From the NCBI RefSeq assembly GCF_022763305.1, contig NZ_JALEGT010000010.1, forward strand, positions 1 through 64,000: a stretch of 64,000 nt of DNA. The letters run 5' to 3'. Below the pieces are notes generated by a model. That model was given only the letters and a program-made list of their open reading frames with translations, was not told where the DNA came from and did no database searches. Source of the stretch: Marivita sp. GTDB lineage: Bacteria; Pseudomonadota; Alphaproteobacteria; Rhodobacterales; Rhodobacteraceae. Below are positions 39,755-47,454 of this stretch, piece after piece; position 1 is the first letter of the stretch, and each line of letters opens with the position of its first letter. The position numbers and the translations under genes were made by a program.

Positions 39755-40945
39755 ATGTTTCCCGACCGGTTCTCGAACCTTCCGGCTTATGCGTTCCCGC
39801 GTCTGCGCGCCCTGTTGGACGTGCACGAACCGGGTGGTCCCGTCGTGCACATGACGATCGGAGAGCCGAAACACGCGTTCCCCGCATGGATTTCCGACAT
39901 CCTGGCTCAGAACATCGCCGGGTTTAACAAATACCCGCCGAACGAAGGCACCCCCGAACTGCGCGGCGCGATCCGCGACTGGGTGCAGCGCCGCTACGGT
40001 GTTGCCCTTGATGCCGACACGCAGATCATGGCGCTGAATGGCACCCGCGAAGGGCTCTATAACGTCGGGATGGCGTTGTGTCCCGAGACCAGGAATGGCG
40101 CGAAGCCGGCTGTTCTGATGCCGAACCCGTTTTATCAGGTCTATCTGATTTCTGCGATTTCCGTGGCCGCTGAACCGGTCTTCGTGAACGCGACCGACGC
40201 AACCGGCCATCTGCCCGATTTCGAAGGCCTGCCGGAAGACGTGCTGAAGCGCACTGCGCTGGCCTATATCTGTTCCCCGGCCAACCCGCAGGGCACCGTG
40301 GCCGACCGCGATTACTGGGAACGGTTGATCAACCTTGCGGAAAGGCACGATTTCCAGATCCTCGCTGATGAATGCTACTCCGAGATCTACCGCGACACGC
40401 CCCCTGTGGGCGCGTTGCAGGTCGCGCAGGAGATGGGGGCCAACCCCGAACGTGTGGTGATCTTCCACTCGCTCTCCAAACGCTCCAACCTGCCCGGTCT
40501 GCGATCCGGGTTTGTCGCCGGTGGGCCTGAATCGATCAAACGCATCCAGCAATTGCGCAACTATTCCGGCGCACCGCTGCCCCTGCCGCTGCAAGCGGTG
40601 GCCGAGGCGGTCTGGAACGACGAGGCCCATGTAACGGAAAACCGCGCGCTCTATGCCGAAAAGTACGATCTGGCCGACCGTATTTTCGGCAATGTGCCGG
40701 GCTACAGGTCCCCACAGGCGGGGTTCTTCCTATGGCTGCCGGTCGAGGATGGCGAGGCCGCGGCCCTCAAGCTCTGGAAAGCCACCGGCGTCCGCGTGCT
40801 GCCCGGGGCTTACCTGTCGCAGGACACAGAGGCCGGGAACCCCGGCAAAGGCTATATCCGGGTCGCCATGGTGGCCCCAAAAGACGAAACCGAACGCGGC
40901 CTGACGCAGATCAGGGACTGCCTTTACGGCGGTGAAGACCAATAA
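39755..40945 (+). CDS. class I/II PLP aminotransferase (DapC-like)
   Basis: The 396-residue fold-type I aminotransferase has the conserved [14 protein letters not shown] region, [18 protein letters not shown] and the PLP-lysine motif [14 protein letters not shown], with a C-terminal Arg-containing IRVAMV section. In alphaproteobacteria such proteins are often annotated as succinyldiaminopimelate aminotransferase for lysine/peptidoglycan synthesis; this assignment is family-level only. It is 11 bp upstream of ftsK and may be co-transcribed. Confidence 0.87.
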
Positions 40946-40956
40946 AGAGGCGAACG

Positions 40957-43917
40957 ATGGCATATCAGGCGCGGGGGCGGGACCCCCTCTTTGACAGCAA
41001 CATGCAGGCTGCGCTGGAAAAGCGCGGCAAGGAGCTCGGTGGCTTCGTCCTGATGGCGCTGGGGGCGATGGCCGCCGCGATGATCTATTCGTACTCGCCA
41101 CAGGACCCAAGCTGGCTGTCCGCCACCGATGCCCCCGTTCAGAACTGGCTCGGTCGGGCAGGGGCCTCGGTCGCAGCGCCCTTGTTCATGATCGTCGGCT
41201 GGGCAAGCTGGGGTCTCGCGCTGGTCCTGCTGGTCTGGGGCGCGCGCTTTGCCCTGCACCGGGGCGAAGAACGCGCGCTGTCCTGTCTCATTTTTGCGCC
41301 GATCTGGGTGGCCTTGGCCGCCGTCTATGCCGCTGGCGTGCCGGAAAACAGCACATGGACCCACAGCTTTGGCTTGGGTGGTCTGTTCGGCGACATGATG
41401 ATGGGGTCGATCCTGACGATCTTGCCACTGGGCACCACATTCGCGCTCAAGCTCATGATGCTCCTGCTGGGCGGTGTCGTTCTTGTGATGGGCGCTTTTG
41501 TCCTTGGCTTCACCCGTCTTGAATTGTCGCGCCTTGCCCGGTTCCTGCTGGTCGGTGTGATCATGGTCTATGCCACGATGCTCAACCTTCTGGGCAAAGG
41601 CGCGTCCGGTGCGCTGGTCGCCGCGCGCCAGATGCAGGCGAAAAACGCCGAACGCCGCGCGATCCGTGCGCAGGAAAAGGCTGAAGCCGCAGAATGGGCC
41701 GCCGCACAAGAGGCCGTGCGGCCCGAACCGCGTGTTACACGTATCGCGGCCAAGGCAGCACCTGCGACCTATCCAGAAGACGACCTGATCGACGATCCCT
41801 ATCCTGCACCCGCACCGCAGAAGACAGGCTTCCTGTCCAAGATGCCGTCGCTGATCCGCCGCGCCGATCCCGAGCCGGAACTGGTCGAGACATGGCCCAC
41901 CGGAGACCTGCCAGAGACCCTGCCAGGGGATGATCGCGTGCGTGCGAAGATTGCCGACGCCATCAAATCGCGCGTGCGTCAGATGCCCGCGGCAACGGCG
42001 GCGGCCACCGCACCCCTGACCAAGGGACGCGGCCGCCGGCCCGACCCGCTGATCTTCAAGCCTGCGCCGCAGCTGCCGCCAGAGCCGCCTGTGACGGCCC
42101 GCGCCGCAGCGACTTTGCGGGCCGAACCGCCGGTGACCGCTCCCAAACCGGCTGCCTACCAGCCGGTGCCTCAGGCACCAGCCTACGAGGACGATCCCGA
42201 GAACATCTTCGACGACATGACCGACTGGGACGATTACGGCGAAGACACGCAGGCCTACGCGCCTGTGCCGCCCGCTCCGCCCGTGGTGCCGCAGCCTGAG
42301 GCGCGCAAGGTGGTCCAGCAACCGCAGCGCAAACCGCTCCAGCCGTCCAAGCGCGCGCAGCAGGAAGCGCAGCCGCAACTGCAATTCGAGGACAAGCAGG
42401 TCGATTACGACCTGCCGCCGCTGGGCCTTCTCATGGACCCGGCCAATATCGAACGTCACCACCTGAGCGACGAAGCGCTTGAGGAAAACGCCCGCATGCT
42501 CGAGGCGGTGCTCGATGATTACGGCGTGAAGGGCGAGATCGTCAGCGTCCGCCCCGGTCCCGTTGTCACCATGTACGAGCTTGAACCCGCGCCGGGCCTC
42601 AAGGCGTCCCGCGTGATCGGTCTGGCAGACGACATCGCGCGCTCCATGTCTGCACTCTCCGCCCGTGTCTCCACCGTGCCGGGCCGCAGCGTGATCGGTA
42701 TCGAACTGCCCAATGAGAAGCGCGAGATGGTCAGCTTCCGCGAGATCCTCTCGACCCGCGACTATGGCGACGGTACCCAGAAACTGCCGCTCGCCTTGGG
42801 CAAGGATATCGGCGGCGATCCGGTTGTCGCCAACCTTGCCAAGATGCCCCACCTGCTGATCGCGGGGACCACCGGGTCGGGGAAATCCGTGGCGATCAAT
42901 ACCATGATCCTGTCGCTGCTGTACAAGCTGACGCCCGCCGATCTGCGGCTTGTGATGATCGACCCCAAGATGCTGGAACTTTCCGTCTATGACGGCATCC
43001 CGCACCTCCTGTCGCCCGTTGTGACCGATCCGAAAAAGGCGGTTGTCGCCCTGAAATGGGTCGTGGGCGAGATGGAAGACCGCTATCGCAAGATGTCCAA
43101 GATGGGCGTGCGCAACATCGACGGCTACAACGGCCGTGTCGCCGACGCCCTGAGCCGTGGCGAAATGTTCGAACGCACCGTCCAAACCGGCTTTGACGAC
43201 GAAACCGGCGAGCCGATCTTCGAGACCGAGGAAATCCAGCCCGTCAAAATGCCCTATATCGTCGTCATCGTCGACGAGATGGCCGACCTGATGATGGTCG
43301 CGGGCAAGGAAATCGAAGCCTGCATTCAGCGCCTCGCCCAGATGGCACGCGCCTCGGGCATCCACCTGATCATGGCGACACAGCGCCCGTCTGTCGACGT
43401 CATCACCGGCACGATCAAGGCAAACTTCCCAACCCGGATCTCGTTCCAGGTCACCTCGAAGATCGACAGCCGCACCATCCTTGGCGAAATGGGGGCCGAA
43501 CAACTGCTGGGGCAGGGCGACATGCTCTACATGGCCGGTGGCTCCAAGATCATCCGCTGCCATGGCCCGTTCGTGTCCGACGAAGAGGTCGAGGAAATCG
43601 TCACCCACCTCAAGGCGTACGGCCCGCCGGAATATGTCAGCGGCGTTGTGCAGGGTCCGGATGACGAAAAGGCCGACAATATCGACGCCGTTCTTGGCCT
43701 CAACACCGGCGGCAATACCGACAGCGAAGACGCGCTCTACGATCAGGCCGTCGCCATCGTGGTGCGCGACCGGAAGTGTTCGACCTCCTACATCCAACGC
43801 AAGCTGGCCATCGGGTACAACAAGGCCGCGCGGCTGGTCGAACAGATGGAAGAAGAGGGCGTCGTCACTGCGGCCAACCATGTCGGCAAACGCGAAATTC
43901 TTGTTCCGGAACAGTAA
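40957..43917 (+). CDS. ftsK: DNA translocase FtsK
   Basis: The 986-residue divisome protein pumps chromosome termini through the septum and activates XerCD. Residues about 25-190 hold four transmembrane helices. A Pro/Ala/Glu-rich linker runs to about 460. The RecA-like motor has Walker [13 protein letters not shown] near 640 and Walker [13 protein letters not shown] near 768. The winged-helix gamma domain that reads KOPS sites is at about 925-986 ([20 protein letters not shown]). AAAGAGG precedes the ATG. lolA follows downstream, a common alphaproteobacterial order. Confidence 0.97.
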
Positions 43918-43928
43918 GGCTTGGTCTG

Positions 43929-43948
43929 TGCCGGGCGTCTGCCCGGCA
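43929..43948 (+). terminator. GC-rich stem-loop after ftsK
   Basis: TGCCGGGC and GCCCGGCA form an 8-bp stem with loop GTCT, 12 bp after the ftsK stop. There is no T-run, so termination efficiency is uncertain; it may instead protect the 3' end. Confidence 0.5.
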
Positions 43949-44043
43949 TCCCGTATCGGCAATAATCCCCGCTGCTATCGCATAACACCGGCTTGCTTGC
44001 CATATAGGGTGAAAGACGACTCGAGCAGACAGGACCTTGCCCC

Positions 44044-44665: not shown

Positions 44666-45331
44666 GGTGGCGGCGCCGTCGTCTGACAGCACCTGCACAT
44701 CCGTCACGAGGATGATCTCGCACCCACCCACGATCGAGCCGTCATCCCGCCGCGTCGACGACCGCCAGGGTTTGATACCGTCCCCGGTGACTGTGACAAG
44801 GTAGCCCCGCACCCTGACCCGCGTGCCGAGTCCGATCGCCATCAGGGCATCGTTGATGGATTGGTCCGCCGGGATGAGGTGATTGTTCGTGACCTGCTGC
44901 ATCCAGTCGTCCGGCAGCTTGGCATCCGGCGCGTTGGAGAACCAGATCAGGCGATGTCCTGTCCGGAAGGTGAGGGCCTCGGTCCCGCCGGACGCCGCCA
45001 GATCCCCCCAGACGATGCCAAGGTCCAGAGGCGAAATCGCGCTGGTCGGATCATTCCTGTAGGTCCGGCGCGTGACCACACGTCCTTCGATCACGTAGCT
45101 TGCCATCAGTTGAGCCTCGAACCCGTGCCCGAGACCCACGCGCATCTTGGGCAATCGGGCCTGCGCCGGGGCGCCGTCCTGCGCCACGGTCAGAGGCAGC
45201 GGTGGCAGCTCCGACGCATCAATGGCGGTGCCCAGATCGGGCGGTGGTGCCAGCCGGTCCGCGCTCTGTCCAAACACCCAAGCCGCGAGGACAATAGCGA
45301 AAACGGCGATCTTGGTGCCTTCGTCGAACAT
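44663..45331 (-). CDS. membrane-anchored protein of unknown function
   Basis: The 222-residue protein has one N-terminal transmembrane segment (FDEGTKIAVFAIVLAAWVFG) and an extracytoplasmic domain with DLGIVWGDLAASGG, RLIWFSNAPDAKLPDDWMQQ and VRVRGYLVTVTGDGIKPWRS. The last motif and the NHLIPAD segment suggest a beta-sandwich. The frame is open upstream, but the hydrophobic anchor and an AGAGGG upstream favour the ATG at 45331. I cannot name the family. Confidence 0.7.
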   Translation of the reverse strand: MFDEGTKIAVFAIVLAAWVFGQSADRLAPPPDLGTAIDASELPPLPLTVAQDGAPAQARLPKMRVGLGHGFEAQLMASYVIEGRVVTRRTYRNDPTSAISPLDLGIVWGDLAASGGTEALTFRTGHRLIWFSNAPDAKLPDDWMQQVTNNHLIPADQSINDALMAIGLGTRVRVRGYLVTVTGDGIKPWRSSTRRDDGSIVGGCEIILVTDVQVLSDDGAAT

Positions 45332-45439
45332 GACGTCCACAACCCTCTGAACTGCGTGCTGGCAACAGCCTGTAGCAGCGCAAAATGGCAGGAATGGGCC
45401 AACGCTGTGCCGGTGCTGTCCCCATGTCGGCCTGCGCCA

Positions 45440-45502: not shown

Positions 45503-46717
45503 ATGTATCGAAGAGTGTTCCTGAGTTCGGCCTCGGCCGCCCTGGTTGCGCCCTACACGGCTGCGGCGACCTTTCCGCGCCGCCCGGACGGCTATCTGCG
45601 CACGAACTGGAGCCGCGATCCCTTTGCCTTCGGATCCTATTCCTACATCGCGCGCACGGCCTCCCGCGCCGATACACGCGCGATTGCCCGCCCTGTCGAT
45701 GGCCGCCTCTTCTTTGCCGGAGAAGCCACACATCCCGACTACAACAGCACGGTCCACGCCGCCTACGAGACCGGTGTTGCGGTGGCCGAGACGGTCGGAG
45801 ACTCGACCGCCGGAACGGTCGCCATTCTCGGCGCGGGGATCAGCGGGCTGACCGCGGCCCGTCACCTGCAGGACCTTGGGCGCAACGTTACCGTCTTCGA
45901 AGCGCGCGACCGCGTCGGCGGGCGCATCTGGACCGACACCAGCCTTGGTCTACCGCTCGACCTCGGGGCGAGCTGGCTGCATGGGGACGAGGGCAACCCG
46001 ATCCTCGCCCTTTCCAAGAACCGGCGTATGCGCACTATCGCCACCGGCGATGACTATGTGATCCGCGGTACCGGAGGCCGTCGGTTGCGCAACCGTGATC
46101 TGCCCGACTGGGCTGAGGACGTCATGTCGATCCAGCAGGAGTACGGCGCCGCAGGTGCCGACATCAACTGGGCCGCCTATGAGACCGATCCCGATTACGA
46201 CGGGGAGGACCTTCTCTTTCCCGATGGCTACGCACACATCCTCGGCCAGCCTGAAACGGACCTCGATATCCGCCTCGGAACCGAGGTGCGGCGCGTTGCG
46301 CTGGCACAGGACGGTGTGACCCTTGCCACGGCGGAGGGTGCTCTGGGGCGCTTCGATAGCGTCATCGTGACCGTGCCGCTGGGCGTTCTCAAGGCCGACC
46401 GGATCGCCTTTTCCCCGCCGCTGCCAACAGACAAGCAGGCCGCGATAAACCGGCTTGGCTTTGGCCTGCTGGACAAGCTTTACCTGCAGTTCGAGGACGC
46501 GTTCTGGGATGCGGACGCGACCTGGATCCTGACCCCCGAAACCGGGCTTCCGCCCGGCCAGTTCAACCAGTGGCTCAACCTTGCCCCGGTGCTTGATGCG
46601 CCGATCCTTCTGGCATTCAACGGGGCTGGTCCGGCGCGCGACCTGTCCGGGCTGTCGGACGAGGCCCTTCTGGACCGGGCGGCGCAGGTTTTGAACGCGG
46701 CCTATCCGGCGAGCTGA
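45503..46717 (+). CDS. flavin amine oxidase with circularly permuted domain order
   Basis: The 404-residue protein begins with a Tat-like signal (RRVFLSSASAALVAPYTAAA). Residues 31-100 are then the segment normally found at the C-terminus of flavin monoamine oxidases: NWSRDPFAFGSYSY, RLFFAGEATHPDYNSTVHAA. The N-terminal FAD fold of the family follows at 106-145 (VAILGAGISGLTAARHL, VFEARDRVGGRIWT), then the central substrate domain, and the protein stops at AAQVLNAAYPAS where the normal enzyme would continue into the segment now at the front. All FAD-contact motifs are present, only reordered. The ribosome-binding site is weak (GCTGGG). Confidence 0.82.
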   Translation: MYRRVFLSSASAALVAPYTAAATFPRRPDGYLRTNWSRDPFAFGSYSYIARTASRADTRAIARPVDGRLFFAGEATHPDYNSTVHAAYETGVAVAETVGDSTAGTVAILGAGISGLTAARHLQDLGRNVTVFEARDRVGGRIWTDTSLGLPLDLGASWLHGDEGNPILALSKNRRMRTIATGDDYVIRGTGGRRLRNRDLPDWAEDVMSIQQEYGAAGADINWAAYETDPDYDGEDLLFPDGYAHILGQPETDLDIRLGTEVRRVALAQDGVTLATAEGALGRFDSVIVTVPLGVLKADRIAFSPPLPTDKQAAINRLGFGLLDKLYLQFEDAFWDADATWILTPETGLPPGQFNQWLNLAPVLDAPILLAFNGAGPARDLSGLSDEALLDRAAQVLNAAYPAS

Positions 46718-46860
46718 GCCCGACCTACACCGTTATGGCCATCGCAATTCGCACAGGATCTGTGCGGTGATCGGCGTTGTGCGCAACTCTTTGCACCTTA
46801 ATTCCGTTGCACATAGAGACCGGGGCCGCGCGCCCTGCCGCACAGCTGGAAAGGGGCATC

Positions 46861-47454
46861 ATGAGCACGCCTAAGATCACGATCATCTTCTATTCGACCT
46901 ACGGAACCAACCATGCCATCGCGCTTGAGGCGCAAAAGGCAGCCGAAGCCGCCGGGGCAGAGGTGCGTCTGCGCCGCTTTGCCGAAACCGCCCCGAAAGA
47001 GGTGGTCCAGGGCCAGGGGGCCTGGGTGGCACAGCTCGAGAAAATGAAGGACATCCCCGAAGTCAGCCATGACGACATGGAATGGGCGGATGGCTATTTC
47101 ATTTCCGCGCCCACCCGTTATGGCAACATGCCCAGCCAGGTGCGGGCCTTCATCGACACGCTGGGCGGCCTCTGGCAGCAGGGCAAACTGGCCAACAAGA
47201 CGATCACCGCCACGACCAGTGCGCAGACCCTGCATGGCGGCCACGAGACCACGCTCTGGACTCTCTATGTCACTGCGATGCATTGGGGCTGCATCATCGT
47301 GCCGCCGGGCTACGCCGATCCGATCAAGTTCGAAGAGGACGGAAACCCCTACGGATTTTCCAAGGTCAGCGGCGAATTCACCGACGCGGGCAAGAAATCG
47401 GTCGCCTACCAGGCGCGTCGCCTGGTGGAGTTCACCGGCAAACTGGTGGGCTGA
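46861..47454 (+). CDS. wrbA: WrbA-family NAD(P)H:quinone oxidoreductase
   Basis: The 197-residue flavodoxin-fold protein reduces quinones by two electrons using FMN. Visible motifs are IIFYSTYGTNHAIALEAQKA (FMN phosphate loop), APTRYGNMPSQVRAFIDTLG, and TTSAQTLHGGHETTLWTLYV (a variant of the WrbA GGxE region). GGAAAGGGG precedes the ATG at 46861. Single-gene unit; length matches the family. Confidence 0.93.
   Translation: MSTPKITIIFYSTYGTNHAIALEAQKAAEAAGAEVRLRRFAETAPKEVVQGQGAWVAQLEKMKDIPEVSHDDMEWADGYFISAPTRYGNMPSQVRAFIDTLGGLWQQGKLANKTITATTSAQTLHGGHETTLWTLYVTAMHWGCIIVPPGYADPIKFEEDGNPYGFSKVSGEFTDAGKKSVAYQARRLVEFTGKLVG

What the first reader, a model, noticed from the sequence alone, without database searches (positions are those of the whole stretch)
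45503..46717. Flavin amine oxidase in circularly permuted order
The C-terminal FAD-contact block of the family (NWSRDPFAFGSYSY ... RLFFAGEATHPDYNSTVHAA) is at residues 34-90, ahead of the dinucleotide fold (ILGAGISGLTAARHL) at 108-122, and is absent after the central domain, where the protein ends at NAAYPAS. A Tat-like signal precedes it. No C-terminal block is found in any frame downstream. This order is what a tandem duplication followed by loss of the outer halves would give. Circular permutation of a whole flavoenzyme with an export signal would be unusual.
Basis: partly seen in the sequence, partly recalled or inferred. Interest (0 to 1): 0.85.

Follow-up and report, generated by a model that had tools for sequence, protein, structure and literature searches.

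The report
Naturally circularly permuted flavin amine oxidase
A bacterial gene encodes a probably exported flavin amine oxidase whose last piece has been moved to the front of the chain, and dozens of relatives in very different bacteria share this rearrangement and are predicted to fold normally.

Summary
The 404-aa protein at 45503-46717 (+) carries the flavin amine oxidase blocks in the order C-terminal FAD block (residues 30-98), dinucleotide fold (105-172), catalytic tail (234-398). Block profiles built only from standard-order relatives hit it at E 1.1e-26, 4.5e-33 and 7.2e-51.

It is neither an assembly error nor a lone oddity. I found 78 distinct permuted proteins in Alphaproteobacteria and actinobacteria, isolates among them; 76 end in the same loop, 2 are cut short. 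AlphaFold2 gives pLDDT 90.0 and pTM 0.87, like a standard-order control (89.5, 0.86), and the moved block keeps the same five secondary-structure elements. dN/dS is low in every block. The catalytic lysine is kept in 77 of 78 (partly read by eye).

Most likely it is a working, Tat-exported, FAD-dependent amine oxidase of the LSD1/polyamine-oxidase type; substrate unknown. The window's subgroup also lacks about 40-45 residues of the helical substrate domain, which actinobacterial long forms keep.

One or several permutation events cannot be decided (AU p 0.19-0.49; best trees need 1-5 changes). No half-way form was seen, so tandem duplication stays an inference. Nine paper searches showed no report of it.

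The parts
45503..46717 (+). circularly permuted flavin amine oxidase gene (404 aa, P0001)
45503..45580 (+). Tat-like export signal (residues 1-26, MYRRVFLSSASAALVAPYTAAATFPR)
   Evidence: R3/R4 at least 90% conserved over 45 permuted proteins; pLDDT under 50 at residues 1-22; cleavage and export not tested
45584..45808 (+). moved C-terminal FAD block, residues 28-102 (HMM 30-98; elements E30-33, E46-48, H55-62, E69-71, H84-99)
   Evidence: same five elements as E405-408, E421-423, H431-437, E444-446, H459-483 of standard-order L082
45797..45814 (+). new join of the ancestral C-terminus to the ancestral N-terminus (residues 99-104; the two block profiles lie 2 residues apart)
45815..46018 (+). 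dinucleotide-binding (Rossmann) block, residues 105-172, GAGISG
46061..46147 (+). place where about 40-45 residues of the helical substrate-domain segment are missing compared with standard-order and long permuted relatives (residues 187-215)
46202..46696 (+). substrate domain / catalytic tail, residues 234-398
46475..46477 (+). Lys325, equivalent of the conserved Lys-water-flavin N5 lysine
   Evidence: aligned to the Lys of LSD1 MGFGNLNK; invariant in 45 of 45
46715..46717 (+). stop codon just after the new C-terminus, PF01593 profile position 366 of 443

Best explanation
The gene encodes a functional, natural circular permutant of a Tat-exported, LSD1/polyamine-oxidase-type flavin amine oxidase. 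The chain begins (after the signal) in the loop that normally links the last helix of the substrate domain to the C-terminal FAD block. It runs through the FAD block, joins the old C-terminus to the old N-terminus by a linker of about 2 residues, continues through the Rossmann fold and the substrate domain, and stops in the same loop. The pieces fold back into one FAD site. The protein would be folded with FAD in the cytoplasm, exported by Tat, and would oxidise an amine C-N bond by hydride transfer to flavin N5; the lysine-water-N5 motif suggests that O2 is the re-oxidant, giving H2O2. Shown: block order, family-wide conservation, shared cut point, selection, predicted fold. Inferred: FAD binding, export, oxidase chemistry. 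Unknown: substrate (polyamine or another primary/secondary amine is the first guess, about 0.35) and the route of permutation.
For: Block HMMs from standard-order proteins find C-Rossmann-tail order in 45 of 45 rows of the permuted alignment and Rossmann-tail-C in 32 of 32 standard rows. 78 distinct permuted and 41 distinct standard proteins remain after dropping copies above 97% identity. Permuted homologues lie in isolates such as Marivita cryptomonadis, M. lacus, Pseudooctadecabacter jejudonensis, Thalassovita mediterranea and Erythrobacter sanguineus. AF2: pLDDT 90.0, pTM 0.87, ten-residue bins covering 21-110 at 74-97; control L082 89.5/0.86 with the same elements in the C-block. Foldseek, which aligns in chain order: permuted model to LSD2 TMq 0.64-0.67, rmsd 4.1-6.1, best E 2.0e-21; control 0.81-0.83, rmsd 2.0-2.2, best E 1.3e-43 (to LSD1), as expected if one block is out of order. 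The standard profile covers LSD2 in one stretch, profile 29-456 of 458; the permuted profile needs 3 stretches, the best only 212-405 of 406 (run with different E limits). dN/dS medians: C-block 0.17, Rossmann 0.19, middle 0.15 (15 pairs each), signal 0.33 (14 pairs). G73, E74, K325 invariant in 45, GxGxxG in 78 of 78. Role of the lysine: PMC8009472 and PMC6341606 (passages).
Against: No experiment; no FAD in the model; no coordinates, so the FAD pocket itself was not measured. AF2 could be drawn to the family fold by its training. The rmsd of the sequential part to LSD2 (4.1-6.1) is worse than in the control (2.0-2.2), which the permutation and the missing helices may or may not fully explain. 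No conserved neighbour gene outside Marivita to support a pathway. Patchy presence: 6 of 17 genomes of the genus, 15 of 394 in the family sample, so it is dispensable. One distant permuted protein has His instead of the lysine (L145/L172).
Confidence: 0.87

Rival explanations
1. Assembly or annotation artefact: a chimeric contig joined pieces of a standard gene in the wrong order.
For: The finding was first made on one contig; some relatives are metagenome bins, and three of the 47 permuted loci are broken or cut (L048, L068, L075).
Against: The same order and cut point occur in dozens of independent assemblies, isolates included, at 37-76% identity to the window; Marivita neighbours are syntenic around the gene.
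Confidence: 0.01
2. Non-catalytic relic or regulatory protein: the permutation destroyed oxidase activity and the protein kept another role, or is decaying.
For: Short permuted forms lack about 40-45 residues of the helical substrate domain; patchy distribution.
Against: Purifying selection in all blocks; the catalytic lysine kept in 77 of 78 (60 by pattern, the rest read by eye); long permuted forms keep the full helical domain.
Confidence: 0.08
3. Several independent permutations at the same loop rather than one origin.
For: Trees with the actinobacterial long forms need 4 (quick), 2, 5 and 3 changes of order; a single change occurs in 4%, 0% and 0% of 200 bootstrap trees; starred branches force at least 2.
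Against: Holding all permuted rows together is not rejected: AU p 0.488, 0.28, 0.193; deep branches are weak; a first quick tree without long forms gave a single split at SH-aLRT 99; the cut point and a short linker of 2-9 residues are shared.
Confidence: 0.35
4. Fusion of split genes: a gene for the C-block and a gene for the core were fused in reverse order, without tandem duplication.
For: The result would look the same; no duplicated intermediate was seen.
Against: No separate C-block gene was noticed among the loci classed, though I made no search for one; tandem duplication is the commonly proposed route (recalled).
Confidence: 0.12

Closest known systems
Flavin-containing amine oxidoreductase family PF01593, LSD1/LSD2 and polyamine/spermine oxidase branch
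   Same: all three blocks, FAD motifs, catalytic lysine, predicted fold
   Different: order C-block, Rossmann, tail; none of the 60 PDB sequences shown (of 101 matched) has its best stretch running across the new join; the window subgroup lacks about 40-45 residues of helical domain
Bacterial standard-order relatives with Tat-type leaders (e.g. L082 Ideonella paludis, L087 Leptolyngbya, L142/L143/L146 of the actinobacterial order)
   Same: nearest standard-order sequences (32-40% identity in the best segment, for L081-L114 without L084), several with RR leaders, some with a lipobox-like Cys
   Different: canonical order; keep the helical segment
Synechocystis PCC 6803 pSYSM amine oxidase (MYO_RS17000)
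   Same: 32.5% identity, matched in two pieces
   Different: order not classed by me. A Synechocystis polyamine oxidase is characterised (Samasil 2017, seen only as a citation in PMC6341606 and PMC7576179); that it is this plasmid gene is recalled, not tested
Other natural permutations among flavoproteins: PutA proline dehydrogenase barrel versus MTHFR (PMC3779223, passages), split-barrel flavin reductase domain versus ferredoxin reductase-like domain (Murzin 1998, cited in PMC13327496, passages)
   Same: flavin-binding fold re-wired by circular permutation in nature
   Different: those link distant families of other folds by structure; here the permutation is inside one enzyme family with clear sequence identity
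Engineered permutants of the FAD protein LucY (PMC4408115, passages)
   Same: FAD protein tolerates permutation; made there from a tandemly repeated construct
   Different: artificial; a different fold (MurB-like, recalled)

Membership tests
PF01593 flavin amine oxidase | significant match above the curated cut-off | tested here: met
   234.8 bits against cut-off 19.8, 3 stretches
PF01593 flavin amine oxidase | canonical order Rossmann - substrate domain - C-terminal FAD block | tested here: not met
   C-block first; so it is filed as a permuted variant, not an ordinary member
PF01593 flavin amine oxidase | Lys-water-N5 lysine | tested here: met
   K325 aligned to the LSD1 lysine, invariant in 45 rows
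PF01593 flavin amine oxidase | bound FAD and amine oxidation | not testable with these tools
   needs purified protein
LSD1/polyamine oxidase branch | closest solved relatives by sequence and fold | tested here: met
   LSD1/LSD2 first, then spermine and polyamine oxidases
LSD1/polyamine oxidase branch | complete helical substrate subdomain | tested here: not met
   59 residues between Rossmann and tail profiles versus 94-118 in standard forms; helices 150-171 and 179-186 of the L082 model have no counterpart
natural circular permutation | same blocks, clean new cut and join, no duplicated block, inherited by relatives | tested here: met
   78 distinct proteins, join 2-9 residues, 76 of 78 end 2-8 residues after the tail profile, none with two C-blocks
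natural circular permutation | same three-dimensional fold as the unpermuted form | tested here: inconclusive
   prediction only: equal confidence and same elements as the control; non-sequential superposition not available
Tat substrate | twin-arginine leader | tested here: met
   RR upstream of the C-block in 75 of 78; two of the three misses (L055, L065) are starts I trimmed too far, the third is L071; export itself not testable

The most novel reading that the evidence does not exclude
One enzyme family has been circularly permuted repeatedly in nature at the same loop, because the termini of its FAD domain lie side by side and a cut between substrate domain and FAD block is harmless. In the short lineage this was followed by loss of the helical lid, giving exported amine oxidases with an unusually open active site that may accept bulky or peptide-bound amines.
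Probability: 0.25. Interest if true: 0.8.

Novelty: new variant of a known kind. Interest (0 to 1): 0.64.

Why it matters
Natural circular permutation of a complete enzyme within one recognisable family is uncommon (recalled), and I found none described for flavin amine oxidases in the searches named. Here standard, long-permuted and short-permuted forms coexist, partly in one bacterial order, so the steps and their effect on folding, FAD loading, Tat export and activity can be compared directly. It also warns annotators: domain searches report an ordinary amine oxidase and hide the order. The permuted scaffold offers new chain ends for fusion and sensor design.

Tried and rejected
Misassembly and chance motif similarity were rejected. 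A duplicated intermediate was looked for among the 137 block-ordered entries and not seen. A shared operon partner was looked for by clustering neighbours in 47 loci plus the window: apart from Marivita synteny the widest neighbour clusters are an ABC transporter ATPase in 8 loci and a TetR/hydrolase group in 5, at varied positions, so no pathway was claimed. Phage records: no match. Plasmid records: 244 with a match, all below 60% identity; I did not class their block order. NCBIfam: none of the 25 models shown (of 54) reaches its cut-off. A single-origin tree was given up as proof when added long forms weakened it. VIA-align was not available.

Rows dropped: L048, L068, L075 (broken or cut) from the permuted alignment A2; L092 from the standard alignment A3; 19 close relatives before the tree; repeated and close rows before the tree; 11 long or oddly composed rows before that. 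L151 and L144 could not be classed. Of 39 matching genomes only 30 loci were fetched and classed.

Full report
What is there. The ORF 45503-46717 (+) encodes 404 residues. The frame is open further upstream, but homologues begin at the same twin-arginine leader, so the ATG at 45503 is the likely start. Pfam gives PF01593 with 234.8 bits in three stretches. Against human LSD1 the pieces are query 28-108 = LSD1 577-669, query 102-177 = 107-182, query 225-401 = 387-569, so the C-terminal FAD block stands first. Profiles built from 32 standard-order relatives and cut into three blocks give E 1.1e-26, 4.5e-33 and 7.2e-51 for C-block, Rossmann and tail in that order. A standard-order control, Ideonella paludis L082, is matched by PF01593 in a single stretch, 1-443; in the long permuted protein L139 the best stretch runs from profile position 1 to 366 and ends one residue before the end of the 479-residue stretch given, while its C-block lies at the start (L150, the same gene). 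The cut therefore lies at about profile position 366.

Not an artefact, and not alone. In the genus (reached by whole-genome search) 6 of 17 genomes hold a collinear copy over essentially the full length, the window included, the other five at 69-76% identity. In the family sample 15 of 394 genomes had a match at E 1e-60 or better, all 15 permuted. In the class sample 4 of 385 had one at 1e-50 or better, 3 permuted and 1 standard. In a sample of the phylum of L077's genome (titled Acidimicrobiaceae bacterium) 4 of 296 had one, 3 permuted and 1 standard; in a first sample of its order 11 of 198, 7 permuted, 3 standard, 1 unclear. A long permuted query matched 39 of 397 genomes of that order (overlapping the 198); of the 30 loci fetched 22 are permuted, 7 standard and 1 unclear. 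After removing copies above 97% identity there are 78 permuted and 41 standard proteins. None of the 137 block-ordered entries has two C-blocks.

Anatomy of the permutation. In the 78 permuted proteins the join between C-block and Rossmann profile is 2-9 residues, 2 in the window; 76 end 2-8 residues after the tail profile and 2 are cut short within it. The new ends fall in the short loop that reads about LR.YG...(I/V)P(E/D)P..TRW in standard relatives, 8-9 residues between the profiles; several permuted proteins still begin their mature part with the (I/V)P(E/D)P motif and end near YG, so hardly a residue was lost. Two length classes exist: 55 short forms with 56-66 residues between Rossmann and tail profiles (59 in the window) and 23 long forms with 94-107, like the 94-118 of standard forms. 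The short forms thus lack about 40-45 residues of the helical part of the substrate domain; helices 150-171 and 179-186 of the L082 model have no counterpart in the window model. A twin arginine precedes the C-block in 75 of 78; in 34 of 78 a Cys follows it within 5-25 residues, a loose lipobox-like pattern. Of the 22 permuted loci all have RR and 16 a lipobox-like motif. Standard-order relatives of that order have similar leaders.

Does it fold and work? AlphaFold2 with 45 permuted sequences gives pLDDT 90.0 and pTM 0.87; the stretch below 50 is 1-22, the leader. The standard control gives 89.5 and 0.86. The moved block has strands and helices at 30-33, 46-48, 55-62, 69-71, 84-99, spaced as 405-408, 421-423, 431-437, 444-446, 459-483 in the control. 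Were this block loose, I would expect a pTM near 0.75 (my estimate). Foldseek aligns only in chain order and gives TMq 0.64-0.67 (rmsd 4.1-6.1) for the permuted model to LSD2, 0.81-0.83 (rmsd 2.0-2.2) for the control. This is consistent with, but no proof of, one rebuilt FAD site; the order-independent aligner was not available and no coordinates are given. Six Marivita-type coding sequences (15 pairs; 14 usable for the signal) show dN/dS medians of 0.17 (C-block), 0.19 (Rossmann), 0.15 (middle) and 0.33 (signal) by a Nei-Gojobori count with about half of the synonymous sites changed. The lysine that holds the water at flavin N5 is K325, invariant in 45 rows; over the 78, my pattern counted 60, and reading the 18 misses by eye gives 77 with Lys and one with His. 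In MAO A this lysine governs O2 reactivity (PMC8009472, passages), in maize polyamine oxidase it is Lys300 (PMC6341606, passages).

Origin. With 45 permuted and 33 standard rows, order changes once on a quick tree, SH-aLRT 99. Adding long forms weakens this: 4 changes on a quick tree of 94 rows, 2 on a careful tree of 76, 5 on one of 74, 3 on a reduced one of 63; a single change is seen in 4%, 0% and 0% of 200 bootstrap trees of the careful ones, and starred branches force at least 2. Yet holding all permuted rows together is not rejected: AU p 0.488, 0.28 and 0.193, nor in two partial tests, 0.248 and 0.351. The long forms came only from actinobacterial genomes, but the long query was sent only there; an origin there followed by shortening and transfer to Alphaproteobacteria is a hypothesis, not a result. 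Some bins labelled Verrucomicrobia, Opitutaceae or Anaerolineae carry copies; nearly the same protein occurs in bins labelled Alphaproteobacteria and Anaerolineae (L078, L079), so such labels may be binning errors.

Function. Best guess: exported amine oxidase. I saw no neighbour kept outside Marivita; in Marivita it lies in the ftsK-lolA region, and in M. lacus it starts 7 nt after the lolA stop. The closest solved relatives are LSD1, LSD2, spermine oxidase and polyamine oxidase. The missing helical side may change substrate size. Substrate prediction is not possible from this.

Literature. Nine searches on permutation listed no permuted flavin amine oxidase, judged from listings and the passages named; searches returned nothing, and 32 could not have matched as I wrote it (whole words). 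A tenth was on polyamine oxidases. Most subscription papers and preprints are not held. Passages seen: engineered LucY permutants (PMC4408115), PutA/MTHFR barrel permutation (PMC3779223), split-barrel flavin domain (PMC13327496), non-sequential alignments counted for the FAD/NAD(P)-binding fold, without the word oxidase (PMC2213659), permuted glutathione synthetase (PMC2876114). The tree of life of polyamine oxidases does not contain the word stem permut (PMC7576179).

Verdict. A real, conserved, natural circular permutant of a known enzyme family: a new variant of a known kind, with an open question (one event or several) that the data now make testable.

Noticed in passing
L135, L138-L141, L145 and the permuted ones among L150-L177: Long permuted forms that keep the full helical substrate domain; permuted order is the commoner one among the loci fetched from an actinobacterial order (22 of 30), with RR in 22 of 22 and a lipobox-like motif in 16 of 22.
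   Followed up: yes
window 44666-45337 (-): 224-aa ORF without Pfam match between lolA and the oxidase; 75% and 77% identical to ORFs at the same place in Marivita loci L035 and L037; in M. lacus (L010) it is not between them, the oxidase directly following lolA.
   Followed up: partly
window 46858-47451 (+): FMN_red/flavodoxin-like protein just downstream of the oxidase, not clustered with genes of the other Marivita loci.
   Followed up: no
L078 and L079: Nearly the same permuted protein in bins labelled Alphaproteobacteria and Anaerolineae; probable binning error.
   Followed up: no
L145/L172: Distant permuted protein with His in place of the flavin-facing lysine; might be a dehydrogenase or inactive.
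   Followed up: no
window 40924-43962 (-): 1012-aa open frame opposite the FtsK-like ORF (40957-43917, +; named by eye); most likely a shadow frame of a GC-rich gene.
   Followed up: no
L071 (5929-7134): Short permuted oxidase of an uncultured Sphingomonadaceae bin without a twin arginine at its start; may be cytoplasmic or wrongly started.
   Followed up: no
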